Shown piece after piece: positions 2,830-37,008 of a stretch of 37,008 nucleotides of DNA (within the stretch, counting starts at the first letter, position 1; each line of letters begins with the position of its first letter). The translations under genes and the position numbers were made by a program. A model generated the notes under the pieces. That model was not told where the DNA came from. It saw only the letters and a program-made list of their open reading frames with translations, and ran no database searches. This DNA is from Nitrospira sp. (GTDB taxonomy: Bacteria > Nitrospirota > Nitrospiria > Nitrospirales > Nitrospiraceae), in contig SWDH01000029.1 of the NCBI GenBank assembly GCA_005116945.1, positions 445,724 to 482,731 of the forward strand, read 5' to 3'.

Positions 2830-3573
2830 ATGCGTCGTCGGCTTATTCAATTCAGCCTGATGCTCAGCGCAGTATTATTCGTGTCTTGTGCTTCCGCTGT
2901 TCCACCGGCACGGATTGGCGAGTATGTGTCCTCATGGCGTCAGGTCAGCAGCGAAGCGTTCACGAAGATCGAACAACGTCCCTTACAGGCAGGACTTGTC
3001 ATGGTGTCAGATACGGCGGAGCCGGGCGCGGCTCCGAATCTGCCGGAAGAGGCGCTGGTTCGCCTCGGCGAAAGTTTGCGACGGGATCTTGGCCGTGCGA
3101 TTCCTATTGCGATTACAGAGATACTCTCAGCGGACGGTATCGGGCCGCGGTCGCAGCGAAATGTGGCCCAGTTCGCAGAATTAGGGCAGCAACGTGGGTT
3201 CGACTATCTGGCTGTTGTGGTCGTCTCCAGCACTGAACAGGAATATCCCGTCACCCTCTCTCTCGGATTGACCACGCATGCACAGCCTGGATTTCGTCGA
3301 GACAACTGGTCGCTGCTGGAGTTCGTTCTATTGGATTTGAAGCAGCATCAGGTCGTCGCGCAGGCTGAGGGACGGGGTTGGGCTACCCTGGATCGCCCGA
3401 GTGCGCCAGGGATCGATCAATGGTACCCAGCGATCTTCTTGCGTCCACAGGATGAGCGGCGTATCTGGCCTCCGACGTATGAGGGCGCGCCGAATACGCT
3501 GCGAGTGGTGTCCTTTGAGCAAGCGGCTCAGCGGCTGGTGTTGAAACTGCGCAATGTGTGGCGTGGGGTATGA
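2830..3573 (+). CDS. Putative lipoprotein of unknown function
   Basis: A 247-residue protein that I do not recognise. The first 20 residues are a basic then hydrophobic signal ending LFVSC, so Cys20 is a likely lipidation site. The rest alternates alpha and beta: a helix RLGESLRRDLGRAI, a hydrophobic strand DYLAVVVVSS, a strand pair around SLLEFVLLDLKQHQVVAQAEGRGWATL, and a C-terminal helix. This pattern resembles periplasmic lipoproteins that report on or assemble envelope complexes, but no family is certain. A purine-rich ribosome site (GAGGTGAGG) sits just before the ATG. It is divergent from the caspase-like lipoprotein gene, with a 276-nt spacer in which I see no clear element. Confidence 0.75.
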   Translation: MRRRLIQFSLMLSAVLFVSCASAVPPARIGEYVSSWRQVSSEAFTKIEQRPLQAGLVMVSDTAEPGAAPNLPEEALVRLGESLRRDLGRAIPIAITEILSADGIGPRSQRNVAQFAELGQQRGFDYLAVVVVSSTEQEYPVTLSLGLTTHAQPGFRRDNWSLLEFVLLDLKQHQVVAQAEGRGWATLDRPSAPGIDQWYPAIFLRPQDERRIWPPTYEGAPNTLRVVSFEQAAQRLVLKLRNVWRGV

Positions 3574-3686
3574 GAGTCCGAATCGGCGACTCGAAAGAAT
3601 ACATAGTAGCCAAGGTGCGTCAGGGCCCTGGTGAATCGTTCCCTTTGGACTGTGTCCGGTGAGGTTCTAACGGAGGCTATTAGTCT

Positions 3687-19355: not shown

Positions 19356-20885
19356 ATGATGCTTCAACGCATAGCGGTCGCGATGGGGACTCTGCTCATG
19401 CTGACCGGGTGTATGGTCAAGCCGTACGTGTTGACCATGCAAGAGGTACAAACACGAGCGACGAAGGATCTCCAGACTGTGACGACCATTCAGGAGCCGG
19501 TTTCAGGACCGATTAATCTCTACGAAGCCATCGCTCGCGCGCTGAAATACAACTTGGATGCCAGGGTGAAGGCCATGCAGGCGCAATTGGCCCACCAACA
19601 GCTCAACGTCGCGCACTATTCTTTGCTGCCGCAGCTGTCGGCCAATGCCGGGTTCGATGGACGCAATAACTTCACCGGTGGTGTCGGACAATCGCTTGTG
19701 ACAGGCCGCCAAGCGGTGGAGGCGTTTACCTCTTCTGAGAAGAATGTCACCTCCGGCAATTTGGCGTTGAGTTGGGATGTGTTGGATTTCGGGTTGTCGT
19801 TTGTGCGTGCGCAGCAGGCGGCGGACAACGTTATGATTGCGGAGGAAGAAAAGCGTCGAATTGCCGTGCGGCTGGCTCAGGATGTTCGGAGCGCGTACTG
19901 GCGGGCAGTCAGTGCCGAGCGTGTGCTTCACCGGGTAGAGTTTCTCAATGAATCTGTGCCAAAGGCATTAGAGAGCGCTCAACAGATCGTCGACAAGAAG
20001 CTGCAGTCTCCGCTCACCCCGCTCAACTACCGCCGTGATTTACTCAATATCCAGCGCGAGGTTCAGCGGCTCTATCGTGAACTCAGTACTGCGAGAACCC
20101 AACTGGCCTCGATGATGGGGTTACCACCGGGGGCGCTCTACGAACTCGCGGTGCCGACGAGGACGAGCACGGTACCGACTGTCAATCTGGATACAGAGAG
20201 CATGGAACAACAGGCTTTGCTGTTCCGGGCAGAGTTGCGCTCGATCGATTATCAAAAGAGGATCAATGCCAAGGAGGCCCGGGCCGTGTTCCTGGAATTG
20301 TTTCCCAGCCTGAGGCTCAGCGCAGGTGGGTACTACAACAGCAACAGCTTTTTATTCAATCAAAACTGGCTGGGCTATGCCTCTCAGGCGAGTTACAACT
20401 TGCTCTCTGCGTTTCGCACTCCCGCCAAGTTGAAAGCGGTGGACGCTCAGCGTCAAGTCCTGGATGCCCAAAGCATGGCGTTGACCATGGCCATCCTGAC
20501 CGAAGTGCATGTGGGGGCCGTCCAGTTTGCCCAAACGAAACAGGAGTACGAGAACGCGAAGAATTACCACGATACCCAAACGGCCATCACGGACTACACG
20601 AAGAGTTTGTGGCTCACGCACAGCACGAGCGACCTCACGCTCATCCGCGAACGGGTCAACGATGTGCTCGCCGAAGTGCGAATGGACAGCGCACAATCCG
20701 GCGTAGAAACAGCCTATGCCACGTTGATGGGATCGTTGGGACAAGATGCCGTGCCGAATGGCATCGGGGGCCAGACGGTTGCACAGCTGGCCGAGACACT
20801 TCGGAATATCTGGGAGTCAATCCCTGTAAGGGCGTCCGACGAAGAAGGGAGGGTGGACAATCATGCGGCATCTTTGGCGCACTAG
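19356..20885 (+). CDS. TolC-like outer-membrane channel lipoprotein
   Basis: An outer-membrane efflux protein (OEP/TolC family), 509 residues from the chosen start. The signal runs to lipobox LTGC. Two OEP repeats are visible: the first opens with NLYEAIARALKYNLDARVKAMQ and continues as a long helix, with strand segments around LLPQLSANAGFDGRNN; the second has FLELFPSLRLSAGGYYNSN and long helices. The start at 19356 gives a compact lipoprotein signal; the GTG at 19308 would add a non-hydrophobic extension. Its end overlaps the start of the adaptor gene by 23 nt. It would form the outer-membrane duct of the machine encoded by the next three genes. Confidence 0.9.
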   Translation: MMLQRIAVAMGTLLMLTGCMVKPYVLTMQEVQTRATKDLQTVTTIQEPVSGPINLYEAIARALKYNLDARVKAMQAQLAHQQLNVAHYSLLPQLSANAGFDGRNNFTGGVGQSLVTGRQAVEAFTSSEKNVTSGNLALSWDVLDFGLSFVRAQQAADNVMIAEEEKRRIAVRLAQDVRSAYWRAVSAERVLHRVEFLNESVPKALESAQQIVDKKLQSPLTPLNYRRDLLNIQREVQRLYRELSTARTQLASMMGLPPGALYELAVPTRTSTVPTVNLDTESMEQQALLFRAELRSIDYQKRINAKEARAVFLELFPSLRLSAGGYYNSNSFLFNQNWLGYASQASYNLLSAFRTPAKLKAVDAQRQVLDAQSMALTMAILTEVHVGAVQFAQTKQEYENAKNYHDTQTAITDYTKSLWLTHSTSDLTLIRERVNDVLAEVRMDSAQSGVETAYATLMGSLGQDAVPNGIGGQTVAQLAETLRNIWESIPVRASDEEGRVDNHAASLAH

Positions 20886-21648
20886 CGGGGTGTTCGGACT
20901 GTTATTGGTTGGCATGGTGGTCGTGGGCCCTCAAGCGGGCTGGTCGAAAGGCGAGCGCCCGTCGCACGTCATGCGATTGGAAAATGGGGTCATGCGCGGG
21001 GTGGTCAAAGCCGCGACGCAGGCCGTGCTCTATGCCCAAATCCAAGGCCGTGTGAGTCGGGTGCCATTTAAAGAAGGACAGCGATTTGAAAAGGGAAGTA
21101 CGCTGGTGCAAATCGATTGTGACAAGTATCGCGCGGAGTTGGCTGTGGCGTTGGCAGAACATGAGGCGAAAGACAAAACATTTCAGAACAACAAAGAACT
21201 CACCAAACTGAAGGCGGTCAGTACGCTGGATTTGGAAATCTCCGAAGCCGAAGCGAAGAAGGCCTATGCTGCGATTCGGATTGCCGAGATCAGTGTGCAG
21301 GGCTGCCACATCGCAGCCCCGTTTTCAGGCCGCGTTGTCGGGGTCATGGTCAACGAGCATGAAAACGTCTTTCCAAACGACAAGCTCCTGAGCCTGCTCG
21401 ACGACACGAGTCTCGAAATCGAGCTGGTGCTGCCCTCCTCGTCGTTAGCGTGGCTGAAACGGAAATCCCCCTTCACATTCGCCGTCGATGAAACGCACCA
21501 TGAGTATGCGGCCAAGGTCAAGGAGATCGGTGCGAACGTGGATTCGGCGAGTCAGACGATCAAGGTCATCGGCACTTTCGGTAAGCTGCCGGCCGATGTG
21601 CTGGCCGGGATGAGCGGCACGGCGCAATTTGCATCGAGGCAACCCTAA
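20863..21648 (+). CDS. Periplasmic adaptor (HlyD/RND-type membrane fusion protein)
   Basis: A 261-residue exported adaptor. The signal peptide covers about residues 1-28 (hydrophobic FGLLLVGMVVVG). The first lipoyl half is QGRVSRVPFKEGQRFEKGSTLVQID. A short helical hairpin spans about 85-145, and the second lipoyl half is CHIAAPFSGRVVGVMVNEHENV, followed by a beta-barrel part (LEIELVLPSSSLAWL). It lacks the membrane-proximal domain of full RND adaptors. It overlaps the TolC-like gene by 23 nt and is followed after 4 nt by the second adaptor, so it is one operon. Confidence 0.9.
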   Translation: MRHLWRTSGVFGLLLVGMVVVGPQAGWSKGERPSHVMRLENGVMRGVVKAATQAVLYAQIQGRVSRVPFKEGQRFEKGSTLVQIDCDKYRAELAVALAEHEAKDKTFQNNKELTKLKAVSTLDLEISEAEAKKAYAAIRIAEISVQGCHIAAPFSGRVVGVMVNEHENVFPNDKLLSLLDDTSLEIELVLPSSSLAWLKRKSPFTFAVDETHHEYAAKVKEIGANVDSASQTIKVIGTFGKLPADVLAGMSGTAQFASRQP

Positions 21649-21652
21649 CGTC

Positions 21653-23017
21653 ATGGCCACGACCACCGAACCGACCTCGCAGCAACTGACCACCCTGATC
21701 CACCTCGCGGCCCTCACGCATCTCGAAGGGCAGGTCCGCGCGGCAAAAACCGTTCAGGAACTGCAGTTTCTCTCCGTGAACGAGACGCGACGGCTCGTGC
21801 CCTACCAGCAGGCGTATCTGTTCAGTGCAGCCGAGTCGGAGTCTGTGCCATGGCAGGTGGCCTCCGCATCGAGTGTGGCGGTGGTCGATCGCGATGCGCC
21901 GATGATTCGCTGGCTTGAACAGGCCATCCAGGCGCTCCGTGTGGAGCATCCGGACGCCATCCCGATGGTTGTCACGGAAGAGACCTGTCCGGAGTCTTGC
22001 CGTGAAGGATGGCGCGAGCACGTCCAGGGATATGTCTTTTGGTGTCCGTTGAAGCACCCGGATGAAACAGTGCTCGGAGGCTGGTGGTTCGAACGGGAAT
22101 TTCCATGGGAAGAGAATGATATCACGATCGTCCATCGATTAGCCGGGAGTTTTGCCTATGCGTGGAAGGCGTTGTCGAAACGCACCAGAAGCTGGTCCGC
22201 GACCATCAAAAAGCCTTCGTACTGGTTGATCGGTGCCGCGATTGTTGCGGGGTTATGCATACCGATCCGCGTGTCGACGATGGCGCCGGTCAAGGTCTTG
22301 GCGAAGGATCCCATTGTTGTGAGCGCTCCGATGGATGGGGTGATTGCCGATGTGGTGGTGTCGCCGAATACGATGGTGCTGAAGGACCGTCTCTTGTTCC
22401 GTTACGAAGACACCAACGTGCGTAACCAGTTCCAGGTGGCGGAGAAACAACTGGCGGTGGCGAGAGCTGAACATTCGCAAGCCGTCCAGGGCGGCTTTTC
22501 GGATCCGCAACGGAAGGCCGACGCGCCGCTGAAGGAGGCTGAGGCCTCGCTCAAGGAAACGGAGCTCGCCTATGCCAAGGAGATGTTGGCGCAGATCGAG
22601 GTGCGGGCGCCGCAAGCCGGTCTGTTGCTCTATACCGACAAGGCCGATTGGGTGGGCAAGCCGGTCTCCGTCGGCGAGCGGATCATGGAAATTGCCGACC
22701 CGCAGCGTATCGAACTTCGGATCGATCTGCCCGTGAGCGATGCACTGTTGCTGAAAGAGGGCGCAGAGGTGGTTGCATTTTTTGACGCACTGTCGCTGGA
22801 ATCATTTGCGGCGTCGGTGAGCCGAGCCAGCTACCATGCCGAGGTGCTGCCAGGCGACGTGTTGGCCTATCGGGTGACGGCGGAACTGGCCGCGACCGAT
22901 CCGCGTATCCGTATCGGCTGGCAAGGTTCTGCTAAAGTCTACGGTGAGCGAGGTCCACTCGCGTTCTTGCTCTTCCGCCGTCCATTCGCTGCCCTACGCC
23001 AACTGCTGGGAGTGTAA
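21653..23017 (+). CDS. Membrane-anchored HlyD-type adaptor with N-terminal GAF-like domain
   Basis: A 454-residue two-part protein. Residues 10-170 look like a cytosolic GAF-type module: an opening helix, VQELQFLSVNETRRLVPYQQAYLF, then a strand-rich part with FWCPLKHP and GGWWFEREFPW, and a closing helix DITIVHRLAGSFAYAW. One membrane segment follows (near YWLIGAAIVAGLCIPI). The periplasmic part has a first lipoyl half around SAPMDGVIADVVVSPNTMV, a short coiled coil (NQFQVAEKQLAVARAEHSQ...), a second half VRAPQAGLLLY, and a barrel domain. A sensory-like domain on the cytosolic side of an adaptor is unusual. It is 4 nt after the first adaptor and 3 nt before the M50 gene. Confidence 0.82.
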   Translation: MATTTEPTSQQLTTLIHLAALTHLEGQVRAAKTVQELQFLSVNETRRLVPYQQAYLFSAAESESVPWQVASASSVAVVDRDAPMIRWLEQAIQALRVEHPDAIPMVVTEETCPESCREGWREHVQGYVFWCPLKHPDETVLGGWWFEREFPWEENDITIVHRLAGSFAYAWKALSKRTRSWSATIKKPSYWLIGAAIVAGLCIPIRVSTMAPVKVLAKDPIVVSAPMDGVIADVVVSPNTMVLKDRLLFRYEDTNVRNQFQVAEKQLAVARAEHSQAVQGGFSDPQRKADAPLKEAEASLKETELAYAKEMLAQIEVRAPQAGLLLYTDKADWVGKPVSVGERIMEIADPQRIELRIDLPVSDALLLKEGAEVVAFFDALSLESFAASVSRASYHAEVLPGDVLAYRVTAELAATDPRIRIGWQGSAKVYGERGPLAFLLFRRPFAALRQLLGV

Positions 23018-23020
23018 TCC

Positions 23021-24742
23021 ATGGCCGGACCTCCTCCTGCCCAGGTACCGAAGGAACGTAAGCTCCCTCCGCTCAGAAAGAATCTGCAATTCCTGCGTGG
23101 CGCTCCCACCAACGAAGGGGTTCCCACCTGGACCGTCGTCGATCCGGTCCGCAATAAGTACTTTCAAATCGAGTGGAACGTCTATCAACTCCTGCAGCGC
23201 TGGCCATGTGGGACGATCGAGAAGCTGGTCGATGTCATCGCGCGCGAGACCACGTCCCGTATTGGGATGGAAGATGTGGAAGACCTCGTCAAATTTCTCT
23301 ATGCGAACAACCTGACCGAGCAGTCGGCGAGCGGGGAGACCAAGGACTACGTTCAGCAAGAGGCAGCACGCCATCAGGTGTGGTGGCAATGGCTGCTGCA
23401 CCATTACCTCTTCATCAAAATTCCGCTCGTACACCCGCATCAGTTTCTCCACGCCACGTTGCCACTGGTGGCGCCGTTCTATACGGCGGCGGCGGCCTGG
23501 CTCTTCGGCACGATCGGGGTCGTGGGGCTGTTCCTCGTGGGTCGGCAGTGGGACACGTTTGTCTCGACGTTCCTCCATTTCTTCAACTGGCGCGGGGCTG
23601 TCATGTATGGCGCGGTCCTCTGCGTTGTGAAGGTCGTGCACGAACTCGGCCATGCCTACACAGCGACCCGGTTCGGGTGTCGCGTGCCGACCATCGGTGT
23701 GGCCTTGATGGTCATGATGCCGGTGCTCTATTCCGACGTGAGCGATTCGTATCGACTGAGTTCCAAGCGCAAGCGGTTGGCCATCGCCGCGGCCGGGGTC
23801 GTGGCGGAGCTGGGACTCGCTACGATCGCGACCGTGTTGTGGGCCTTCTTGCCTGATGGGACGCTACGGAGCATGGCCTTTGTCGTCGCGACCAGCAGTT
23901 GGATCATGAGCCTGACGGTGAACTTGAATCCACTCATGCGATTCGACGGCTACTATTTACTGGCGGATGGACTCGGACTTCCCAATCTGCAAGATCGTGC
24001 CTGTGCGTTCGGCCAGTGGAAACTCCGCGAGCTATTATTTGCCGCTGGCTCGCCACCGCCCGAAGCAGTCGGCCCCTCGACCCGCCGGATCATGATTGCC
24101 TATGCCTGGGCGATGTGGGCCTATAGGTTGATACTCTTCACCGGTATTGCGGTGATGGTCTATCAGCATTTTTTCAAAGCACTGGGGATCGTCCTGTTCC
24201 TTGTCGAGATTATTTTTTTCATCTGCCTGCCCATTTGGCGAGAACTCATGGCATGGTGGAGTCGACGTGCGGCCTTCACTAGGACGAGCCGGTTCGCCGT
24301 CACGATGGCTGTCGTGGCCCTGCTGCTGACACTCACATTCATTCCGTGGTCCAGTCGTGTGGCGATTCCCGGAGTCTTGCAAGCGAGGTCGTACGCGACC
24401 CTGTACCCTCCCGCCGCAGGTAGGATCGTGACGGTGTCGGTACGTCCAGGCCAGCATGTGCGGAAAGGCGATACCTTGCTCGTCATGGAAAGCTCCAAGT
24501 TGGCCAAAGACGCGGCCCTTGTGCAGACCCAGGTGGATCAATTGGACTTCCGACAGCAACGCCAAGCCGGGCATGCCGATGATCGGGCCCAAGGGCGGGT
24601 GATCGCCGAGTCGCTGAAGGCCAAGGCGCTTCACAGAAAAGCAGTCCTCGCCTCCCAATTCGGCCCAGCCCTTAGACGTCATATGAAGGAACTCCAGCAA
24701 GCCCGTGAAAATTACGGGCCAGTGCGGTTGAGCAAGGCATAA
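23021..24742 (+). CDS. PqqD-like / M50 site-2-protease / half-lipoyl membrane protein
   Basis: A 573-residue polytopic protein. Residues 30-105 resemble a PqqD-like winged helix (WTVVDPVRNKYFQIEW...LLQRWPCGTIEKLVD), a fold that binds leader peptides in RiPP pathways. The intramembrane zinc protease core follows, with HELGH at 207-211 and the third zinc ligand Asp309 in NPLMRFDG. About seven membrane segments lie between residues 140 and 460. After the last one comes a lipoyl half-motif (VSVRPGQHVRKGDTLLVMESSKL) and a coiled coil. The protein then ends at GPVRLSKA, where HlyD-fused relatives would continue with the second lipoyl half (APFxG). That half is not found in another frame, so the C-terminus may be truncated. 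It is the last gene of the export operon. Confidence 0.82.
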   Translation: MAGPPPAQVPKERKLPPLRKNLQFLRGAPTNEGVPTWTVVDPVRNKYFQIEWNVYQLLQRWPCGTIEKLVDVIARETTSRIGMEDVEDLVKFLYANNLTEQSASGETKDYVQQEAARHQVWWQWLLHHYLFIKIPLVHPHQFLHATLPLVAPFYTAAAAWLFGTIGVVGLFLVGRQWDTFVSTFLHFFNWRGAVMYGAVLCVVKVVHELGHAYTATRFGCRVPTIGVALMVMMPVLYSDVSDSYRLSSKRKRLAIAAAGVVAELGLATIATVLWAFLPDGTLRSMAFVVATSSWIMSLTVNLNPLMRFDGYYLLADGLGLPNLQDRACAFGQWKLRELLFAAGSPPPEAVGPSTRRIMIAYAWAMWAYRLILFTGIAVMVYQHFFKALGIVLFLVEIIFFICLPIWRELMAWWSRRAAFTRTSRFAVTMAVVALLLTLTFIPWSSRVAIPGVLQARSYATLYPPAAGRIVTVSVRPGQHVRKGDTLLVMESSKLAKDAALVQTQVDQLDFRQQRQAGHADDRAQGRVIAESLKAKALHRKAVLASQFGPALRRHMKELQQARENYGPVRLSKA

Positions 24743-25268: not shown

Positions 25269-25700
25269 CTAGATGTGTGATGCAAAGCGTTTAGTCTTCG
25301 CTGTTGCTCGAATCCATGAAACGGCATAGGGATGGGCACCAAGTGTTTTAGAGGATTGCACATATTCCTTCAGCTGCAGGAATGACACGGAAGGGTTTAT
25401 CCTTCGAGGCCCCCATGACAATTGCCTATCGATCTCAGACAGGTTCGCTGATTCTTCGGGTTGTTTGATAAGTTGGCCGGCTAGTTCTCTAGCATCGGAC
25501 TTTGGATCGTTGCCTCTGATGAACTGATCTGTTTCAATGAATAGCAGAGCAGTTGGCGAGAGAGTCGAGAACCCTGCCTTCCCCATCCCCATTGTTTTGA
25601 TCAGCCTGACCCATCCATGTTCCTAGAGCTCGTCTGCGGCTAGAGCCAAGATATCTTCTGTGAAACTTAGTTCGTTGCAAAGTGATGTTGGATCGATCAT
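25269..25700 (-). pseudogene. Hypothetical gene with one in-frame TAG
   Basis: From the ATG at 25700 the minus strand reads MIDPTSLCNELSFTEDILAL and AADEL, then TAG (25623-25625). The same frame continues with EHGWVRLIKTMGMGKAG and STLSPTALLFIETDQFIRG to 25269. Both sides of the stop look like one continuous protein of about 143 residues, with a helical start and a winged-helix-like middle (GFSTLSPTALLFIETD). I do not recognise the family. A shorter product could start at the ATG at 25592. The gene is antisense to, and overlaps, the apparent start of the first multicopper oxidase. Confidence 0.45.
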
Positions 25701-28700
25701 GGGATCGTGGTCTAGGAGCCTGTCCGAGTAATGTGCACTTTGGACTGGACAGCCAGCGCGTACTGTGGTTTCTAGGCAGGGCCGTCGAGCAGATTGAGCG
25801 GCAGGTGCAGACCAAAGGGCCGTTCCAGGGCGCTGGAGCCCATGCGATGCAGCAGGGCATTCTGCTCGTCGCGGAAGATCAGGATAAGGTGAAGGTTACG
25901 CAAGGCGCTCGCTGTCCGGCGCAAGCCCCTGTCCGTGCCTTCGATATTTCCACGATCAACGTGGAAATCACCGTGAATCGATTCGGAGATTTCTATCCAG
26001 GGTACATGTACACGCTGACCGAGAATGTGGCAGGTGTGCGGGCAGAAGAGGAAAAGAACAAGGCAGCGCGGGAAAGCGAGGATCCGACGTTCGCCGCCGG
26101 CGCAGTGTCAAACGGTTTGCAGGGCGATCTGATTCAACCATTGGTCATTCGGGCGAACCAAGGGGATTGTCTCCGGATCACATTGCGCAATCAGATTGCC
26201 GACGAACCGACCAACATGATCATCAACGGATCGCAGATGCTCGTCGCCAGCACGGGCAAGCCGGCGACCGCCAATAATCCTGATGCATTGGTGCCGACAG
26301 GGAAGCAGGGCGAATTCGAGTGGTACATCCCCAATGATCTTCAGGTAGGCGGGCGCGCGTTCCACAGCCATGCGACCAGAGAGCAGTATTCCCTGGGCCT
26401 GTTGGGTTCACTGGTGGTCGAGCAGCGAGGGTCTCGGCATCTGAGCCCCTTTACAGGTGAGGAAATGAAGAGTGGCTGGGAGGCGATGATCGATCTCGCG
26501 AACGCCTCGGACTTCCGTGAATTTGTCATTTTCTATCATGAGGCCGGTGACGAGACGTTCCGATTGTTGAATCGCAAAGGCGACATGTTGCCGCAGCGTG
26601 ATCCGCACACGGACACCTATCGGCCGGCCGCTCGGTTGCTCAACTATCGCAGTGAACCTCATGGCACGAGACTTGAGATGCAGGAGCACCTCGTCGGGTT
26701 CGCCGATGAGTCGCAGGGCTATGGCTCCTATACGTTCGGCGATCCCGCCACCACGGTTCCCCGCTCATACTTGGGGGATCCGGCTACGTTCCGGATGGTC
26801 GGTGGGTCTGAAATCGTCCATTCACACCATCTGCATGGCGGTTCGATCCGCTGGGCCAGACAGCCTGGCACGAGCAGAGTCGATCCGACCTTGTCGAAGA
26901 ACGGCCCTGTGAAGTTTCCGCCCATCAGTGACCCGTCGGATCGGCTAGACGTTCAGTCCATCGGTCCGTCGGAAATTTATGATGAGGTCACTGAGGGTGG
27001 GTCAGGCGGCTTGCAGGCCTTGGCCGGTGAGTTCGTGTTTCACTGCCACATCCCGCAGCATTATGTGACGGGAATGTGGGGGTTCTGGCGTGTCTACAAC
27101 ACGTTGCAGTCGACCGGGTTCCAAACCGACGTGATGAAGCCGCTCGTCGAGCTGCCTGATCGTAAGGGGAAAATCAAGCTCGCGGTCAGCTCGGACAAGC
27201 TGGTAGGGACCACAGTGGATTGGTATGGCGGGAAGAAGTGGGAGATCACCAAGGATAAGACAGATTGGAAAGCCAATCCGGTCAAGGTTTCCATCAAGGA
27301 TTGGGTCGAGTACATGTTGCCGCCGCAGGGCTTGCCCGGCAAGACCGAAGATCAGGTGAAGCAGGCTCAGGCGAATGATGCGACGGTGGTGAATTGGAAG
27401 TGGGAAGGTGCACTGGCGCTGAATGAGCCTGAGACGCCGCACAAGTGGGCGGATTATGAATCTCCAACTCCTTTGAAGCGTCCGGCCATTACGTTCGATC
27501 CACAAACCGGGAAACTGGCGTTCCCCTGGCTGCGCCCACATCTTGGAAAGCGGCCTCCATTTGCACCGAATCATGGTGGAGCGCCGTGGTTAGAGCCGTT
27601 CCATGTGCGCGAAGATGGAACCAAGAGTACAGAACAGGCCAGGCCGGGCGAGCAGGGACCGTGGAGCTTGTGTCCGGAAAATTCTCCGCGCAAGTTCTAC
27701 ACGACTCATGCCATTACGCTGCCGATTACGCTCAAGCCGGCGACGGCTAACTCACCCGCGCTGGTTGATCCCATTGGAATGATTTATGTGTTGCACGAGG
27801 AAGAGGCCGAGGTTCGCAAGAATCCCAAAAAGCAGCTTCCGTTGGTGATTCGCGGAAATGTCTACGATTGTGTCGACATCATTTACAAAAACGAAATACC
27901 GGACGATGCGCGGACGGGATGGGCGAATAAGGTCAATCTTCATCCACATTTCTTCCAATTCGATACCAGCGCATCCGATGGTCCGACGATCGGATTTTCG
28001 TACGACATGTCGTTGCGCGCCTTCACCATGTTGACGGATCCGCAGCCTACTAAGGGGATGCCTCTTCCTGGAAACACGGTGCAGACAGCAGATTCGAAGG
28101 CCGGCGCGCGCAGTATTACGGTGGCCGATGCGTCAAAATTCCACGTGAACATAGAACTGGGCGTCGCGATGGACGATCCAAAGTATTTTGAAGTCGCGCG
28201 GATTAAGACCATTGCCGGAAAGACCATCACATTCGATGCACCGTTGAAGTACGACCATAAGAAGAATGATATTGCCAGTGTCGAATTCATCCGTGAGCGC
28301 TGGTATGTCGATGCCGATTTCGGCACGGTGTATTGGCATGACCATGTCTTCGGAACTGATACCTGGGGGCATGGGCTATTCTCAGCCTTCATCACCGAGC
28401 CACCGCGTTCGACCTATCACGATCCGGTCACAGGGAAAGAAATCCGGAGCGGCCCCATTGCGGACATCCATACTTTGGAGCCGGTCTCGGCCCATATCCG
28501 GGGCAGTTTCCGTGAAGTCATGATGCATATCATGGACAGCAATGCCCGGACGGCAGAACTCATCACAACCGATAATCCGCAAGCGAGAGTGGGGGCAACC
28601 ACGGTAGATGGGCCTCCGTCTCATCAGTTCCCAGCGCGTATCAATAAGTCTCCGATGTGGTTTCTGAATGGTGGCGAAGCGACAACCGGAAGCGGCTACA

Positions 28701-30337
28701 GCATGCGTGTGGAGCCGTTGAGTGTGCGTCTAGCCCAGAATCCTGATCCATCGAAACTCTTTGTATCCGGTATTCATGGCGATCCTGGCACTCCGTTGTT
28801 GCGGGCCTATCTTGGCGACCCGATTCTGGTGCGTGCACTGGTTGGGTCTGCAAACGAAGTGCATACCTGGCATGTGACGGGCCATTGGTTCCCGATGGAA
28901 CGGTATTCGACTACCGCCATGCCACGGAGCACGATCCACCTGGCGATTGGAGAGCGATACGATCCAGCGATTCCAGCCGCGGGGGGACCGCAAAAGCAAG
29001 CCGGCGACTATCTCTATTATAGTGGCCGCGCTTCCCACTTCGCGGAAGGCAGTTGGGGAATTTTCCGGGTCTTCGATGAACTGCAGGGAGATCTGAAGCC
29101 CTTGCCGAGCCGTGAGCAGATTCAAAAGTCCGCTCCGTCGGTCTGTCCTGCTGACGCTCCAGTAAAGACCTTCAATGTGTCGGCGATCGACCAGAACATC
29201 CGGTACCATGAAGGGACGCCGGGTGTGATGGAAGTCGATTTGGAACGGAAGATGGTGTTTGGGAACGAGCAGGGCAAGATGTATGTGCTCGATGGCGATC
29301 GCGGCAAGGTCAAGGCCGGTGAACTCAGGCCGAGCCCACTGACCCTGCACGTCAACGTCGGCGATTGTATGAAGATCAATCTTAAAAATGAGATGGCAAA
29401 AGAACGAGCCGGATTCCACGTCGATATGATGGCGTTCGATCCGAAGGATTCGTTCGGCGCTAATGTCGGCAACAATCCTGGCGATCAAACGATCGGTCCG
29501 GGCCAGAGCAAAACGTACACCTATTTTGCTCACCCGGAGTACGGAGAGCTGGCAGCCCTCATTCAAGATTGGGGGAATGTGGTCGAGAATCCACGCAATG
29601 GCCTGTTCGGCTCGATCATTGTCGGCCCCAAGGGGTCGCGCTACCGCGATCCGATGACGGGCGCCGATCTGGCGATGAAGAGCAGCTGGCGTGCCGACGT
29701 GCTCGTGGACCGGACGATCCCTGGGAACGAAAACAGGAAAAACTATAGGTCATTCTCGCTGATGTTCCAGGATGAAGATAACATCGTAGGCGTGAGCTTC
29801 ATGCCTTATATCCAACAGGTGGCCGGCATCACGGCCGTGAATTATCAGTCGGAACCGACTGCCTGGCGGATAGAAAAGGGCTGTGATCTGTCGGAGCTCT
29901 TCAGCTGTGTCAAAGCCGGGTCTACTGGTCCAGCAACACCCCTGCTGCAGGCACATGTTGGAGATCCGGTGGCCATTCACGTGCTCGGCGCGTTCAGTGA
30001 GCAGGTTCAGCTGTTCACTGTCGACGGTCACGAGTGGCCGCATGAGCCGTATTCCCAAGGCGCCGACCAGGTCAGCACTATGGAGTTCGGTGGGTCTGAA
30101 GTGATCAATGCCTACCTCACGGGCGGCGCAGGCGGTCCAAATAAGATTGTCGGCGACTATATGTGGAAAAACCAACGTCCGGCATTTGCCAACGCCGGGC
30201 AGTGGGGCCTCTTCAAGGTCCTGCCAGTTGACGATTCACGGATCCTTCCGTTGATGCCACAGGTCCCGCCGACAAAGACGGCCGAGAGTGAGAATGGTCA
30301 AGGGGCCGTTTCACGAACATCGATGGGTGGACGGTAA
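25682..30337 (+). CDS. Giant multi-cupredoxin multicopper oxidase, paralogue 1 (no signal peptide)
   Basis: A 1,551-residue copper oxidase with at least six cupredoxin-like segments. Ligand motifs in order: a lone HSH (228-230); HSHHLHG (380-386, an HxxHxH motif); HCHIPQHYVTGM (454-465, the HCH...M motif holding the type 1 copper); HPH (754-756); WHDH (His886, His888); and a degenerate HTWHVTGH (1061-1068). Four motifs supply a full type 1 plus trinuclear set, but with the C-terminal-type pair ahead of the N-terminal-type pair. Size and order resemble large metal oxidases of the MnxG/MofA kind; Mn(II) or another metal is a possible substrate. Similarity to the second copy starts only at about residue 33. 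The first 32 residues are unrelated and contain no signal peptide, so the 5' end has probably been replaced. The true start is unclear. Confidence 0.82.
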   Translation: MMLDRSWDRGLGACPSNVHFGLDSQRVLWFLGRAVEQIERQVQTKGPFQGAGAHAMQQGILLVAEDQDKVKVTQGARCPAQAPVRAFDISTINVEITVNRFGDFYPGYMYTLTENVAGVRAEEEKNKAARESEDPTFAAGAVSNGLQGDLIQPLVIRANQGDCLRITLRNQIADEPTNMIINGSQMLVASTGKPATANNPDALVPTGKQGEFEWYIPNDLQVGGRAFHSHATREQYSLGLLGSLVVEQRGSRHLSPFTGEEMKSGWEAMIDLANASDFREFVIFYHEAGDETFRLLNRKGDMLPQRDPHTDTYRPAARLLNYRSEPHGTRLEMQEHLVGFADESQGYGSYTFGDPATTVPRSYLGDPATFRMVGGSEIVHSHHLHGGSIRWARQPGTSRVDPTLSKNGPVKFPPISDPSDRLDVQSIGPSEIYDEVTEGGSGGLQALAGEFVFHCHIPQHYVTGMWGFWRVYNTLQSTGFQTDVMKPLVELPDRKGKIKLAVSSDKLVGTTVDWYGGKKWEITKDKTDWKANPVKVSIKDWVEYMLPPQGLPGKTEDQVKQAQANDATVVNWKWEGALALNEPETPHKWADYESPTPLKRPAITFDPQTGKLAFPWLRPHLGKRPPFAPNHGGAPWLEPFHVREDGTKSTEQARPGEQGPWSLCPENSPRKFYTTHAITLPITLKPATANSPALVDPIGMIYVLHEEEAEVRKNPKKQLPLVIRGNVYDCVDIIYKNEIPDDARTGWANKVNLHPHFFQFDTSASDGPTIGFSYDMSLRAFTMLTDPQPTKGMPLPGNTVQTADSKAGARSITVADASKFHVNIELGVAMDDPKYFEVARIKTIAGKTITFDAPLKYDHKKNDIASVEFIRERWYVDADFGTVYWHDHVFGTDTWGHGLFSAFITEPPRSTYHDPVTGKEIRSGPIADIHTLEPVSAHIRGSFREVMMHIMDSNARTAELITTDNPQARVGATTVDGPPSHQFPARINKSPMWFLNGGEATTGSGYSMRVEPLSVRLAQNPDPSKLFVSGIHGDPGTPLLRAYLGDPILVRALVGSANEVHTWHVTGHWFPMERYSTTAMPRSTIHLAIGERYDPAIPAAGGPQKQAGDYLYYSGRASHFAEGSWGIFRVFDELQGDLKPLPSREQIQKSAPSVCPADAPVKTFNVSAIDQNIRYHEGTPGVMEVDLERKMVFGNEQGKMYVLDGDRGKVKAGELRPSPLTLHVNVGDCMKINLKNEMAKERAGFHVDMMAFDPKDSFGANVGNNPGDQTIGPGQSKTYTYFAHPEYGELAALIQDWGNVVENPRNGLFGSIIVGPKGSRYRDPMTGADLAMKSSWRADVLVDRTIPGNENRKNYRSFSLMFQDEDNIVGVSFMPYIQQVAGITAVNYQSEPTAWRIEKGCDLSELFSCVKAGSTGPATPLLQAHVGDPVAIHVLGAFSEQVQLFTVDGHEWPHEPYSQGADQVSTMEFGGSEVINAYLTGGAGGPNKIVGDYMWKNQRPAFANAGQWGLFKVLPVDDSRILPLMPQVPPTKTAESENGQGAVSRTSMGGR

Positions 30338-32483: not shown

Positions 32484-32588
32484 AAGTAGACACAGTGAGC
32501 CGTGAGTCGGGCGATCGGTATAGGTAGTGCGTTCAAGTCATTCAAACAGTCCGCCCATGATGGCGGGCACATCCGAGGAGGCCGTGTC

Positions 32589-35500
32589 ATGAGATCTTTT
32601 CATACTCAACCGGGACGCAAGCTGAAGCGTTCCGGCGTTGTGCTGATATTGCAAAGTATCCCGCTGGCCGGCAGCCTGCTGATGGCCCCGATGGGGCTGG
32701 CCGCAGACCAGCACAGCCATCAAGGCGACGTAGGGGAAGCCTCGGCGGAGAAGGTGATTTATCGCGAAGGCGGAGCGATGCTTCACGACCGCATGATGGA
32801 GGAGGTCAAGCGCCAGCAGGAAGCCATGGGGCAGAAGGGCGGGTATAGCACTGGCGCGAACAGTCACATGTTACAGCAGGGCGTTCTGCTAGTCGCGGAG
32901 GATCCGGCAAAGATCGCCGTCACGGCCGGGCAGCGTTGCCCGGCGAATGCGCCGTTGAAGGAGTATCACGTCTCGGCGATCAACGTCGAGATCACACTGA
33001 GTCGGTTTCTCGACTATTTCCCCGGGTACATGTATGTGCTGAAAGAGAATGTTGAGAAGGTCCGCGGGGAAGAAGCCGCGAACAGGGAAGCGCGGGAGAA
33101 GGAGAACGATCCCGGCGCCGTGTCAAACGGGTTGCAGGGCGATGCCATTCAGCCGCTCGTCATCCGAGCCAACCAGGGCGATTGTCTCAAGCTTACACTC
33201 CACAACGAAATCACAGATGAACCGACCAACTTGATTGTCAACGGTTCCTCCATGGTGGTCGCGTCTAACGGCAAGCCCGCAACCCCCTCAAATCCAGAAG
33301 GTACGATTGCACCAGGCGGGCAGCAGGCGTTCGAGTGGTATATCAATCCGGATACGCAGGAGGGTGCGCGATTTTTCCGGTCGCATGCATCGCGTGAACA
33401 GTTCAACCAGGGGTTGATCGGCATGCTCGTCGTGGAACCGCGTGGCTCACGCTATCTCAGCCCCTTCGACGGCAAGCCGATGGCGAGTGGTTGGGAGGCG
33501 ATGATCGAAGATCCAAAGGGAGCGGACTTCCGGGAATTCGCGATTTTCTATCATGAGGCCGGTGATGAAGCGTTCCGCCTCTTGAATAAGAAGGGCGAAA
33601 TGTTGCCCCAACGCGATCCACATACCGATTCCTATCGGCCTGGCGCGCGGTTGCTAAATTACCGCAGTGAACCGCATGGCACACGCATCGAGCTTCAGGC
33701 CCATATGGGTTTTTACGGCGACGAGTCCATGGCCTATGGGTCTTATACGTTCGGCGATCCGGCCACGACCATTCCTCGATCCTATCTTGGCGATCCAGCC
33801 AAGTTCCGGATGGCAGGCGGGTCGGAAATCGTGCACTCGCATCACCTCCATGGTGGCTCAATTCGCTGGGCACGCCAGCCGGGGAACAGCAATCTGGACT
33901 TTGCAGTATCGAAGAATGGCCCGGTGAAGTTCCCTCCGATCAGCGACCCCTCCGACCGTTTGGATGTGCAGTCCATCGGGCCGACAGAGGTCTACGATCA
34001 GGTGATCGAGGGTGGGTCAGGGGGCTTGCAAGCTCTGGCCGGTGAGTTCGTGTTCCATTGCCACATCCCGCAGCATTATGTGACGGGCATGTGGGGGTTC
34101 TGGCGTGTGTATAACACATTGCAAGCAGCTGGTTCCCAGACCGATGTCATGAAGCCGCTGGTCGAGCTGCCGGATCGTGTCGGCAAGATCAAGCCAGGCA
34201 CTCCGTCGGACAAGCTTGTCGGCACCACGGTGGACTGGTATGGCGGCAAGAAGTACGAGATCACCCAGGACAAGACCGATTGGAAATCCGATCCGGTGAA
34301 GGTCTCCATCAAAGATTGGGTGGAGATGATGCTCACGCCGCAAGGCAAGCCTGGCAAGAAGAACAGCGAGAAAGAGCAGACCTTGGCCTACGACTCGACC
34401 GTCAACGACTGGGCGTGGGATGGTCGCAAGGCGCTCAGCGAACCCGAGACGACGTATGAATGGGTCAACTACAAGTCGGCGACACCCGGTAAGCGGCAGG
34501 AGATTCTCTTCGATCCGCAATCCGGCAAGATCGCCTGGCCGTGGTTACGACCGCACCTGGGTCGGCGCGTGCCGTTCTCTCCGAGCCACAGCGGCGCACC
34601 GTGGCTGGAGCCGATCCATCGCCGCGACGACGGCAGCAACTCGACTGAACCACCGAAACCGGGCGAGCAGGGGCCATGGAGCCTGTGCCCAGAAGGGGCG
34701 CCGCAGAAGTACTTCAATATTCACGCAATCGCGCTGCCGATCACATTGAAGAAAGCGACGGCCAAGACGCCGGCGATTGTGGATCCGGGTGGATTGCTCT
34801 ACGTGCTGCATGAAGAGGAGCAGGAAGTTCGGAAGAATCCCGCCAAACAGATGCCGCTGGTGATCCGCGGCAACGTGCAGGATTGCATCGACGTCGTGTA
34901 CAAGAGCGAGTTGAAAGACGATGTGCGGCAAGGGTTCTCCAGCAAGACGAACCTGCATCCGCACATGTTCCAGTTCGACACGCAGGCGTCTGACGGACCA
35001 ATCATCGGCTTCTCCTACGAGATGTCGTTGCGGCCGTTCACCATTCTGAAGGACGAGCATCCCGGCAAGGGCATGCCTGTGCCGATGAATACGACGATGG
35101 AGGCCGATGTGGCCAAGGGGGCGACCAGTATCAAGGTGAAGGACGCCTCACGTTACCACGTCAAGACTGAGTTGGGCGTGGGCATGGACGAAGTGGGCGG
35201 ATTCGAGTCCGCACGGATCAGCAAGATCGAAGGCAATACGATCACGTTCGAGCGCCCGCTGAAGTATAGCCATAAGAAGGGCGAGATCGTGTCGGTAGAA
35301 TGGATCCGCGAGCGATGGTATGTGGACGCCGATTTCGGTACCACCTTCTGGCACGACCATGTGTTCGGATTGGACGGGTGGGGCCACGGTTTCTATTCCA
35401 CGTTCATTGCCGAACCGCCTCGTTCCACCTATCATGACCCGGTGACCGGCAAAGAAGTGCGCAGCGGGCCGGTGGCCGACATTCACACCCTTGAACCGGT

Positions 35501-37008
35501 ATCCGCGCATATCAAAGGATCGTTCCGTGAAATTGTGACCCAGGTTATGGATTCCAATCCCCGCACCTCGGAACTCATCACGGCCGATAATCCCCAGGCG
35601 AGGGTTGGGGCCGTTTCGGTGGACGGCACTCCGTCTGCGGTCTATCCAGCCAAACTCAACATGTCGCCGTTGAGGTTTTTGAACGGTGGTGAAGCGACAA
35701 CGGGCGGCGGCTACAACATGCGTGTGGAGCCCTTGTCTGTGCGGCTGGCGAACAATCCAGATCCGTCGCAGCTGTTCAGCAGCCTGATCCACGGCGATCC
35801 CGAGACTCCGATGTTGCGGGCATATTTGGGTGATCCGATCGTGGTCCGGTTAATCGAGGGATCGGCCAACGAAGTGCATTCCTGGCACATCAGCGGCCAC
35901 TGGTTCCCGATGGAACGGTACAGCAAGAATTCGATTCCTCGGAGTTCGCTGCACGTCGTGATTGGAGAACGGTACGATGCGGCCATTCCGGCCGCAGGAG
36001 GACCGCAACAGATGGCGGGCGACTACCCGTACTACAGCGGTCGCGCGTCGCACTTTGCGGAAGGCAGCTGGGGGCTTTTCCGGGTGTTGGACAAAGCGGA
36101 TGCGACACTGAAGCCACTGCCGGGCCGGGGAGAGATTCCGCAGTCGGCCAAGTCTGTCTGTCCAGCCGAGGCGCCGGTGAAAACGTTCAACGTGGCAGCC
36201 ATCGACAAGGCGATTCGCTATAACAAGGGAACGCCCGGTGTGATGGAAGTGGACATGGAGCGGAAGATGGTGTTGGGCAACGAGACCGGCAAAATGTACG
36301 TGCTCGAAGGCGAGAAGACTAAGGTTGCCGCGGGCGGTATTGAACCGAGCCCGTTGACCCTGCACGTGAACGTGGGCGATTGCATCAAGGTGAATCTCAG
36401 GAACGAGATGGCCAAGGACCGGGCCGGGTTCCACGTGGACCATGTGGCGTTCGATCCCAAGGAGTCGATGGGGATCAACGCAGGGAATAATCCAGGCGAT
36501 CAGACAGTGGCGCCGGGGCAGAGCCGGACTTACACGTTCTTCGCCCATCCGGAGTTCGGGGAGAACGCTGCCCTGATTCAGGATTGGGGGAATGTGATCG
36601 AGAATCCGCGGAACGGACTCTTCGGAGCGATCATCATCGGCCCGAGAGGATCTCAGTATCGCGATCCGGTGACTGGTGAAGATCTGGCTCAGAAGAACTC
36701 TTGGCGCGCGGATGTGATCGTGAATCGGAACCTGCCGGGTAATGAGACTCGACAGAACTATCGGTCTTTCGCTCTTCTATTCCAAGACGAAGACAACATC
36801 ATCGGTACCAGCTTCATGCCCTACATCCAAAAGGTAGCTGGTGTCACGGCGGTGAATTACCGGTCAGAGCCGACCGATTACCGGATTGAGAAGGGCTGTG
36901 CGTACAGTGAGGTCCTCGTCTGCGTCAAGGCGGGCGATCAGCCGGTGACTCCGAGCATTGCGGCGCATGTGGGCGACCCGGTCGTGATTCATGTGCTGGG
37001 CGCCTTTA
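32589..37008 (+). CDS. Giant multi-cupredoxin multicopper oxidase, paralogue 2 (3' end outside window)
   Basis: About 1,473 codons are present, and the frame is open to the window edge. A strong AGGAGG site lies 7 nt before the ATG. A signal peptide (hydrophobic VVLILQSIPLAGSLLMAP, cleaved near GLA-AD) shows export. From the first copper motif on, it aligns with paralogue 1 at a constant offset of 36 residues: HSHHLHG at 416-422, HCHIPQH at 490-496, HPH at 790-792, WHDH with His922 and His924, and HSWHISGH at 1097-1104. The lone HSH of paralogue 1 reads RSH here (Arg264). Conversely His1285 (in FHVDHVAFD) is Met in paralogue 1. As in paralogue 1, the copper motifs are in permuted order. It is probably a periplasmic or surface metal oxidase; the substrate is not shown by sequence. 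Confidence 0.88.
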   Translation, partial: MRSFHTQPGRKLKRSGVVLILQSIPLAGSLLMAPMGLAADQHSHQGDVGEASAEKVIYREGGAMLHDRMMEEVKRQQEAMGQKGGYSTGANSHMLQQGVLLVAEDPAKIAVTAGQRCPANAPLKEYHVSAINVEITLSRFLDYFPGYMYVLKENVEKVRGEEAANREAREKENDPGAVSNGLQGDAIQPLVIRANQGDCLKLTLHNEITDEPTNLIVNGSSMVVASNGKPATPSNPEGTIAPGGQQAFEWYINPDTQEGARFFRSHASREQFNQGLIGMLVVEPRGSRYLSPFDGKPMASGWEAMIEDPKGADFREFAIFYHEAGDEAFRLLNKKGEMLPQRDPHTDSYRPGARLLNYRSEPHGTRIELQAHMGFYGDESMAYGSYTFGDPATTIPRSYLGDPAKFRMAGGSEIVHSHHLHGGSIRWARQPGNSNLDFAVSKNGPVKFPPISDPSDRLDVQSIGPTEVYDQVIEGGSGGLQALAGEFVFHCHIPQHYVTGMWGFWRVYNTLQAAGSQTDVMKPLVELPDRVGKIKPGTPSDKLVGTTVDWYGGKKYEITQDKTDWKSDPVKVSIKDWVEMMLTPQGKPGKKNSEKEQTLAYDSTVNDWAWDGRKALSEPETTYEWVNYKSATPGKRQEILFDPQSGKIAWPWLRPHLGRRVPFSPSHSGAPWLEPIHRRDDGSNSTEPPKPGEQGPWSLCPEGAPQKYFNIHAIALPITLKKATAKTPAIVDPGGLLYVLHEEEQEVRKNPAKQMPLVIRGNVQDCIDVVYKSELKDDVRQGFSSKTNLHPHMFQFDTQASDGPIIGFSYEMSLRPFTILKDEHPGKGMPVPMNTTMEADVAKGATSIKVKDASRYHVKTELGVGMDEVGGFESARISKIEGNTITFERPLKYSHKKGEIVSVEWIRERWYVDADFGTTFWHDHVFGLDGWGHGFYSTFIAEPPRSTYHDPVTGKEVRSGPVADIHTLEPVSAHIKGSFREIVTQVMDSNPRTSELITADNPQARVGAVSVDGTPSAVYPAKLNMSPLRFLNGGEATTGGGYNMRVEPLSVRLANNPDPSQLFSSLIHGDPETPMLRAYLGDPIVVRLIEGSANEVHSWHISGHWFPMERYSKNSIPRSSLHVVIGERYDAAIPAAGGPQQMAGDYPYYSGRASHFAEGSWGLFRVLDKADATLKPLPGRGEIPQSAKSVCPAEAPVKTFNVAAIDKAIRYNKGTPGVMEVDMERKMVLGNETGKMYVLEGEKTKVAAGGIEPSPLTLHVNVGDCIKVNLRNEMAKDRAGFHVDHVAFDPKESMGINAGNNPGDQTVAPGQSRTYTFFAHPEFGENAALIQDWGNVIENPRNGLFGAIIIGPRGSQYRDPVTGEDLAQKNSWRADVIVNRNLPGNETRQNYRSFALLFQDEDNIIGTSFMPYIQKVAGVTAVNYRSEPTDYRIEKGCAYSEVLVCVKAGDQPVTPSIAAHVGDPVVIHVLGAF

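What the first reader, a model, noticed from the sequence alone, without database searches (positions are those of the whole stretch)
19356..24742. Four-gene export operon with a PqqD-like/M50 protease instead of an energy module
A TolC-like channel, a soluble adaptor, a GAF-like/HlyD adaptor and a PqqD-like/M50/half-lipoyl membrane protein are packed with 23-nt overlap or 3-4 nt gaps. TolC plus adaptors normally serve an ABC, RND or MFS pump; none is encoded here. The M50 core has intact zinc ligands (His207, His211, Asp309), and a PqqD-like fold could capture a leader peptide. Inference: a secretion route in which an intramembrane protease releases or matures a membrane-tethered substrate into the TolC duct, with a cytosolic GAF-like sensor on the adaptor.
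Basis: partly seen in the sequence, partly recalled or inferred. Interest (0 to 1): 0.75.

Follow-up and report, generated by a model that had tools for sequence, protein, structure and literature searches.

The report
Protease-adaptor exporter for giant leader-tagged proteins
The four genes are one fragmented copy of a widespread bacterial export cassette, in which a membrane protease sits where a pump is expected and which travels with giant proteins carrying a shared tag at their start.

Summary
The four genes are real and laid out as described, but the fourth is a chimera: its ORF leaves the conserved M50 sequence at 24625|24626. The 12 relatives aligned encode 708-714 aa, and a modelled one ends in a complete MacA-type adaptor, so the 'half-lipoyl' end is a rearrangement or misassembly. 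The rest of the operon lies about 230 kb away in the same draft, behind a 100-N gap.

TolC, adaptor, GAF-TM-adaptor and PqqD-like/M50/adaptor form a tight cassette in Nitrospirota, Pseudomonadota and Desulfobacterota, with no ABC gene inside (0 of 80 loci). It travels with a giant repeat protein bearing an N-terminal leader, L-E-x-R-x-x-F-D-x-A, related to NCBI's LEPR-XLL motif.

In 147 family genomes, all 60 with DUF4347 also have the M50 gene; three have M50 alone. In Pectobacterium's order all 12 cassette loci have a leader-bearing giant. Of 15 DUF4347 loci outside that cassette, 11 lack the leader and ten of these start like Sec signals.

Best reading: a TolC-dependent exporter for giant proteins whose leader is bound, probably cut, by the PqqD-M50 protein. 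Energy source and cleavage are unproven; an unlinked ABC partner remains possible. Ten full-text searches listed no description.

The parts
19356..20885 (+). TolC-type outer-membrane channel gene (ORF open from 19308)
   Evidence: PF02321 1.8e-26; 95% identical to the copy of the closest relative
20863..21648 (+). periplasmic adaptor (HlyD/RND_mfp type)
   Evidence: TIGR01730 1.4e-34, over its cut-off; 95% identical to closest relative
21653..23017 (+). cytosolic GAF domain, one transmembrane segment (inferred), complete MacA/MexA-type adaptor (TTG start possible at 21629)
23021..24625 (+). conserved part of the PqqD-like / M50 (site-2 protease) / adaptor gene, first 535 codons only
   Evidence: alignment A1 with 12 relatives; collinear with G057 to this base
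24626..24742 (+). foreign 3' end of the ORF: last 38 codons resemble the end of an unrelated HExxH gene; rearrangement or misassembly junction at 24625|24626
   Evidence: 112 bp 87% identical to G057 near C29:407340 and 83% to own genome near G000:C22:160596

Best explanation
The genes are the exporter half of a five-part system. SHOWN by comparison: a TolC channel, a soluble adaptor, a GAF-TM-adaptor and a PqqD-like/M50/adaptor membrane protein form one tight operon, next to or around a giant repeat protein with the N-terminal leader L-E-x-R-x-x-F-D-x-A; leader and cassette occur together, and most DUF4347 giants outside it have an ordinary Sec-like start instead. INFERRED: the giant is made in the cytosol and its leader is bound by the PqqD-like N-terminal domain of the M50 protein, which has about seven transmembrane helices with its N-terminus inside and its adaptor outside (my count from the model). 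The site-2 protease centre cuts the leader at or in the membrane, and the adaptor domains form a sheath to TolC through which the protein leaves. The GAF domain gates or senses from the cytosol. UNKNOWN: what drives inner-membrane passage (proton-motive force, folding outside, or an unlinked pump). In this genome draft the M50 gene is severed, so the window copy as assembled cannot encode the intact machine.
For: Gene order: all four genes with gaps under 300 bp in 59 of 60 close-group family loci, and a DUF4347/leader ORF downstream on the same strand in 57 of 60. Of the 80 genome contigs kept, 58 have all four in order, 57 without a gap of 300 bp; 0 of 80 have an ABC gene inside, by motif. 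Co-occurrence in 147 family genomes (close-group M50 gene standing for the cassette): both 60, M50 alone 3, DUF4347 alone 0, neither 84; Fisher 4e-38, not corrected for kinship. Leader: 91 of 91 giants with a 5' end in view, some loci being counted twice because fetched from two collections; a stricter motif in 30 of 30 giants against 2 of 563 other ORFs, one of those two a cassette-adjacent giant without DUF4347. Contrast in Pectobacterium's order: a leader at 12 of 12 cassette loci, one of them a variant, three of the giants without DUF4347. Protease residues invariant in 34 of 34. NCBI's RiPP protease models (daptide, YydH/LiaK) match 34 and 31 of 34 members, below cut-off for the members printed. 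GAF fold and complete adaptors.
Against: No secretion, cleavage or complex was measured, and no energy source was identified. LapB-like ABC transporters elsewhere in the genome are commoner in genomes with the cassette (52 of 63) than without (37 of 84; Fisher 3e-6, not corrected for kinship), which favours an ABC in trans. PqqD assignment is indirect: direct profile comparison E 0.014, probability 3%. One leader-bearing DUF4347 protein (G532; L231, L255) has no cassette in the 30 kb seen around it, and L229 has a leader but no M50 gene in the 17 kb seen. On two of seven plasmid loci with the neighbour's start in view (L115, L120) the neighbouring protein shows no leader. Three family genomes have the M50 gene without DUF4347; one is this draft, where a remnant of the giant is present. 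A C-terminal motif also recurs (23 of 45), so the export signal may lie at that end, as in classical type I secretion.
Confidence: 0.58

Rival explanations
1. Type I secretion with the ABC subunit in trans: the cassette is a conduit and a LapB- or MsbA-like ABC transporter encoded elsewhere drives export, while the M50 protein only trims the leader.
For: A LapB-like ABC (E <= 1e-130, all below the curated cut-off) is present in 52 of 63 family genomes with the cassette's M50 gene against 37 of 84 without it (kinship not corrected). Giants carry a recurrent C-terminal motif (23 of 45 against a shuffled mean of 4.9), reminiscent of type I signals.
Against: 11 of the 63 have no such ABC. Three of these are at least 94% complete and have a DUF4347 giant next to the cassette (G072, a single contig; G078; G135). 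Only the top candidates per genome were scored, and weaker ABC hits (E about 1e-93 to 1e-111) remain in all 11, so energising by another ABC in trans is not excluded.
Confidence: 0.28
2. The cassette does not move the giant across the inner membrane. It anchors and releases it: the giant reaches the periplasm by another route and is held in the TolC duct until a protease cuts it, as LapG releases LapA.
For: Two protease-like parts are present: the M50 centre, and DUF4347, which has a caspase/CHAT-like His-Gly and Cys pattern (H 69 of 86, C 83 of 86; likeness recalled). Some giants have a C-terminal hydrophobic segment (16 of 45).
Against: Leader-bearing giants lack an evident Sec signal (4 of 91 exceed my hydropathy threshold), whereas ten of 15 DUF4347 giants outside the cassette start like one (judged by eye and hydropathy, values overlap).
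Confidence: 0.13
3. A small-molecule or peptide efflux pump: the adaptors and TolC export a metabolite or RiPP, and the giant gene is merely a neighbour.
For: NCBI's closest models are RiPP proteases and drug or metal efflux adaptors.
Against: Tight linkage and co-occurrence with one class of giant protein across phyla. No pump gene lies in the cassette. Small precursor genes were not searched for.
Confidence: 0.04
4. Export operon for the adjacent giant multicopper oxidase (MnxG-like, 25682-30337).
For: Adjacent in the window, no evident signal peptide; NF041487 4.9e-39, far below its cut-off.
Against: Oxidase in 146 of 147 family genomes, close-group M50 gene in 63 of 147. In the closest relative the two lie about 30 kb apart, with the cassette's own giant between them.
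Confidence: 0.02

Closest known systems
Type I secretion system (HlyB/HlyD/TolC; LapB/LapC/LapE)
   Same: TolC channel and HlyD-family adaptors in an operon with giant repeat proteins that lack an evident Sec signal; a recurrent C-terminal motif
   Different: No ABC transporter in the operon; the inner-membrane piece is an M50 intramembrane protease fused to an adaptor; conserved N-terminal leader; a further adaptor with a cytosolic GAF domain
PCAT / C39-peptidase ABC exporters (recalled)
   Same: Leader-cutting protease built into the exporter
   Different: Metal site-2 protease with a PqqD-like domain instead of a C39 cysteine peptidase, and no ATPase; giant proteins instead of peptides
RiPP intramembrane metalloproteases: daptide_HExxH NF041824, YydH/LiaK NF058609
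   Same: Nearest named models; the daptide model matches residues 38-403, covering most of the N-terminal domain and the M50 core
   Different: Scores below the curated cut-offs for the members printed (e.g. 172 of 300 bits); here fused to an adaptor and paired with TolC and giant proteins
LEPR-XLL domain proteins (NF012209)
   Same: The leader here is a relative of this 24-position motif: 17.1 and 18.0 bits against a cut-off of 17 for two of four FDxA leaders scanned; 27 bits for the LEPR-type leaders beside a cousin cassette
   Different: FD-A-A replaces LLSAD; the other two FDxA leaders do not reach the cut-off. I know of no published exporter for LEPR-XLL proteins (two papers with the term seen in passages)
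MacAB-TolC and AcrAB-TolC pumps
   Different: No MacB, AcrB or MFS partner in the operon

Membership tests
Type I secretion system | ABC transporter as the inner-membrane component, encoded with the adaptor | tested here: not met
   0 of 80 genome-contig loci have an ABC gene (Walker A plus signature motif) between the first cassette gene in view and the end of M50; no gap of 300 bp or more in 57 of 58 complete loci and 59 of 59 complete family loci. An unlinked ABC is not excluded.
Type I secretion system | TolC-type outer-membrane channel | tested here: met
   PF02321 1.8e-26
Type I secretion system | HlyD-family adaptor | tested here: met
   HlyD_3 hits; MacA/MexA fold
Type I secretion system | uncleaved C-terminal secretion signal | tested here: inconclusive
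   motif [LF][SATGHQ]x[QE][LFVIM] in the last 70 residues of 23 of 45 cassette-adjacent ORFs, shuffled mean 4.9, maximum 11 in 200; function untested
RND or MFS tripartite efflux pump | RND or MFS pump gene in the operon | tested here: not met
   none in the window cassette and no room between the four genes in 57 of 58 complete loci; unlinked pumps not searched
Peptidase M50 / site-2 protease | HExxH plus downstream Asp zinc ligands in a membrane core | tested here: met
   PF02163 over its cut-off; H207, E208, H211, D309 invariant in 34 of 34
PqqD / RiPP recognition element | PqqD-like winged-helix domain | tested here: inconclusive
   strands then three helices at residues 23-95 of the model; Pfam PqqD in 2 of 25 members, best 0.013; 12 of 12 of the paralogues scanned match PqqD, the printed one over cut-off, and align to our domain with E 5.4e-4, probability 30%; direct comparison E 0.014, probability 3%
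GAF domain | GAF fold | tested here: met
LEPR-XLL domain (NF012209) | match over the curated cut-off | tested here: inconclusive
   17.1 and 18.0 over 17, 15.9 under, one without match, among four FDxA leaders scanned
Daptide or YydH/LiaK maturation protease | equivalog score cut-off | tested here: not met
   window protein 169 of 300 and 37 of 225 bits; N. defluvii homologue 172 of 300 and 31 of 225
PCAT exporter | C39 peptidase fused to an ABC transporter | tested here: not met
   neither appears in the Pfam scan of the four cassette proteins

The most novel reading that the evidence does not exclude
A distinct class of protein secretion system without its own ATPase: an intramembrane protease fused to an adaptor binds the LEPR-type leader of giant proteins (annotated up to 16,239 residues in Variovorax), cuts it, and hands the chain to a TolC duct, with a cytosolic GAF domain gating the pore. 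Cousin cassettes handle LEPR-XLL proteins.
Probability: 0.32. Interest if true: 0.95.

Novelty: new variant of a known kind. Interest (0 to 1): 0.77.

Why it matters
It would give the LEPR-XLL-type leader a job, link RiPP-style leader recognition to the secretion of giant proteins, and pose a testable question: how a thousands-of-residues protein crosses the inner membrane with no ATPase in its operon.

Tried and rejected
Multicopper oxidase as substrate: rejected on distribution.

Substrate deleted from this genome: my first reading after (about 23.6 kb missing relative to G057). Revised when searches found the giant's repeats and the genes after it at G000:C22 about 229-245 kb, behind a run of 100 N at 229436. 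Rearrangement or misassembly cannot be told apart without reads.

PqqD by sequence against solved structures: only chance hits (E about 1). The 50 Foldseek rows shown for each model are adaptor chains, and barely tests the PqqD part.

LapB-like ABC as an argument against a partner in trans: I first meant to write that it is equally common with and without the cassette. A recount showed it is enriched with the cassette, so I raised that rival (0.25 to 0.28) and lowered my own reading (0.60 to 0.58), the novel case (0.35 to 0.32) and two minor rivals (0.15 to 0.13, 0.05 to 0.04).

Paper searches (all 10): no title or abstract start listed describes the cassette; several lists were cut (20 of 33, 20 of 83, 12 of 14, 10 of 22). 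Seen beyond listings: matching passages only of PMC6584795, PMC10868602, PMC9611531, PMC8277102 (first 300,000 characters held) and PMC12322963. The library lacks most subscription papers and all preprints.

Rows dropped: L218 was misread in A7 and left out of A8. Of 66 close-group places outside the window, 60 were fetched; six (G142, G108, G117:C1, G106, G133, G074) were not. One search took only giants with a 5' end in view and, for genome contigs, over 100 bits and 450 aa. One search counted 30 of 31 model matches; one fell out in the overlap filter. The giant model includes the leader, so it favours giants that have one.

Full report
THE OBSERVATION. Four ORFs lie as reported: TolC/OEP 19356-20885, an RND_mfp-type adaptor 20863-21648, a third gene 21653-23017 and an M50 gene 23021-24742, overlapping by 23 nt or separated by 4 and 3 nt. 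No ABC, RND or MFS gene is among them. The HELGH and Asp ligands of the M50 gene are intact.

THE SUBSTRATE. In 57 of 60 close-group family loci the M50 gene is followed on the same strand, by -45 to 1506 bp (median 226), by a long ORF with DUF4347 and, in the five scanned, cadherin, Ig-like, laminin-G, beta-propeller or beta-helix repeats. In Proteobacteria the giant often lies upstream of TolC or inside the operon. All 91 giants taken with a 5' end in view have a leader, usually around residues 30-50, often preceded by a basic, proline-rich stretch (some loci are in twice). In 86 non-redundant sequences L, E, R and D are 86 of 86, F 84 and the A two after D 85. The search pattern fixed L and R and required one of E/D/Q and one of D/S. 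A stricter pattern occurs in 30 of 30 giants counted and in 2 of 563 other ORFs of at least 250 aa in the same loci. One of those two is a cassette-adjacent giant without DUF4347 (L194); the other is a chance match in a TolC protein.

CO-OCCURRENCE. In 147 family genomes, taking the close-group M50 gene as the sign of the cassette: M50 and DUF4347 60, M50 only 3 (G000, G087, G106), DUF4347 only 0, neither 84 (kinship not corrected). In the order of Pectobacterium, 11 of 197 genomes have an M50 match at E <= 1e-100 and 23 have DUF4347. One of the 11 (G447) is a cousin cassette (L252), and its DUF4347 giant (L241) is not linked to it. The other ten genomes give 12 cassette loci, because G155 (L130, L243) and G469 (L245, L251) have two each. 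All 12 have a leader-bearing giant adjacent or inside; one leader is a variant (L250), and three giants (L130, L244, L251) have the leader without a clear DUF4347. DUF4347 outside this cassette, 15 of the 24 places: ten start with a Sec-like stretch and have no leader (L230, L232-L239, L241); L240 has neither at its start; L227 and L228 have a LEPR-type leader next to a cousin M50 gene; L229 has that leader but only a cousin adaptor in view; L231 (G532, also L255) has a leader with no cassette in view. Sec-like was judged by eye and hydropathy, whose values overlap (1.73-3.17 in the ten, 0.97-1.93 in leader-bearing ones). The leader thus tracks the exporter, not the domain behind it, with one clear exception.

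DISTRIBUTION. All four genes stand in order in 58 of 80, several of the rest being on short contigs; 57 of those 58 leave no gap of 300 bp. No ABC gene lies inside any of the 80, by motif. M50 relatives are also on 75 plasmid records, 58 of them covering at least 80%. Of eight opened, seven show the four genes in order (L117 by my own ORF scan); L115 shows only the last two. A leader starts the giant in five: Azospirillum, Burkholderia, Kosakonia, E. coli and Variovorax. It is not seen in L115 or L120, and the start is out of view in L117. The four-gene stretch is matched in 24 of 5,426 E. coli genomes at 99% identity or more, over at least 80% of its length in 22.

MECHANISM. The most likely scheme: leader bound by the PqqD-like domain, cut by the site-2 protease, chain passed through the adaptors to TolC, GAF as a cytosolic sensor. 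Shown: the parts, their linkage, the leader, the intact catalytic residues. Inferred: binding, cutting, export. Unknown: energy. A LapB-like ABC at E <= 1e-130 (none over the cut-off) is in 52 of 63 family genomes with the cassette's M50 gene and in 37 of 84 without, an enrichment (Fisher 3e-6, kinship not corrected) that favours a partner in trans. Yet 11 of the 63 lack it, among them a single-contig genome, G072 (the truncated hit in G129 counted as lacking). A recurrent C-terminal motif (23 of 45 against 4.9 expected) leaves open that the export signal is at that end and the leader serves processing.

KNOWN OR NEW. It works like type I secretion but its operon fails that system's defining feature, the ABC subunit. 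Its leader is a relative of NCBI's LEPR-XLL motif, its protease of RiPP maturation proteases. Ten full-text searches listed no description (see Tried and rejected); that is a limit of the library as well.

Noticed in passing
window 25682-30337 and 32502-37007: Two giant multicopper oxidases; the first matches MnxG distantly (133 bits of a 3100 cut-off) and is found in 146 of 147 family genomes. Nearly universal in the family, not explained here.
   Followed up: partly
L033 9459-11231 (-) and other giants, N-terminal domain: DUF4347 looks like a caspase/CHAT-type cysteine peptidase domain (His-Gly and Tyr-Gly-Cys motifs): Cys in 83 of 86, His of SHG in 69 of 86 and Glu in 11; likeness recalled, not tested.
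   Followed up: partly
L123, L130, L155, L200 and others, last 70 residues of giants: Recurrent C-terminal motif such as FSRQV, FTEQL, LSAQL about 30 residues from the end, 23 of 45 against 4.9 in shuffles.
   Followed up: partly
L113 188-856, L116 1-62, L119 16128-18235: Genes annotated 'tail fiber protein' lie near the cassette or its giant on plasmids of three genera; possible further partners or substrates.
   Followed up: no
L037 1225-5027, L050 14090-18312, L051: PAS/GAF histidine kinases, a hybrid kinase with receiver domains or a GGDEF response regulator follow the giant in some Nitrospira loci, so the operon may be under two-component or c-di-GMP control.
   Followed up: partly
L053-L072: A paralogous system in the same genomes: an M50 protein of about 715 aa with a PqqD domain (12 of 12 scanned) plus, in 14 of 20 loci, a related adaptor, mostly about 640 aa, without TolC or DUF4347 in view. 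Function unknown.
   Followed up: partly
L114 and L122 (Variovorax plasmid CP063167.1:19413-68132): The giant beside the cassette is annotated as one 48,720-bp gene, 16,239 residues, and starts with the leader.
   Followed up: partly
L033 about 3508-3635 and 42 places in G000: A dispersed repeat, matched over about 24 to 125 bp, occurs across the genome.
   Followed up: no
window 652-2553 (-): A caspase-domain (Peptidase_C14) protein; L048 also holds one near its cassette.
   Followed up: no
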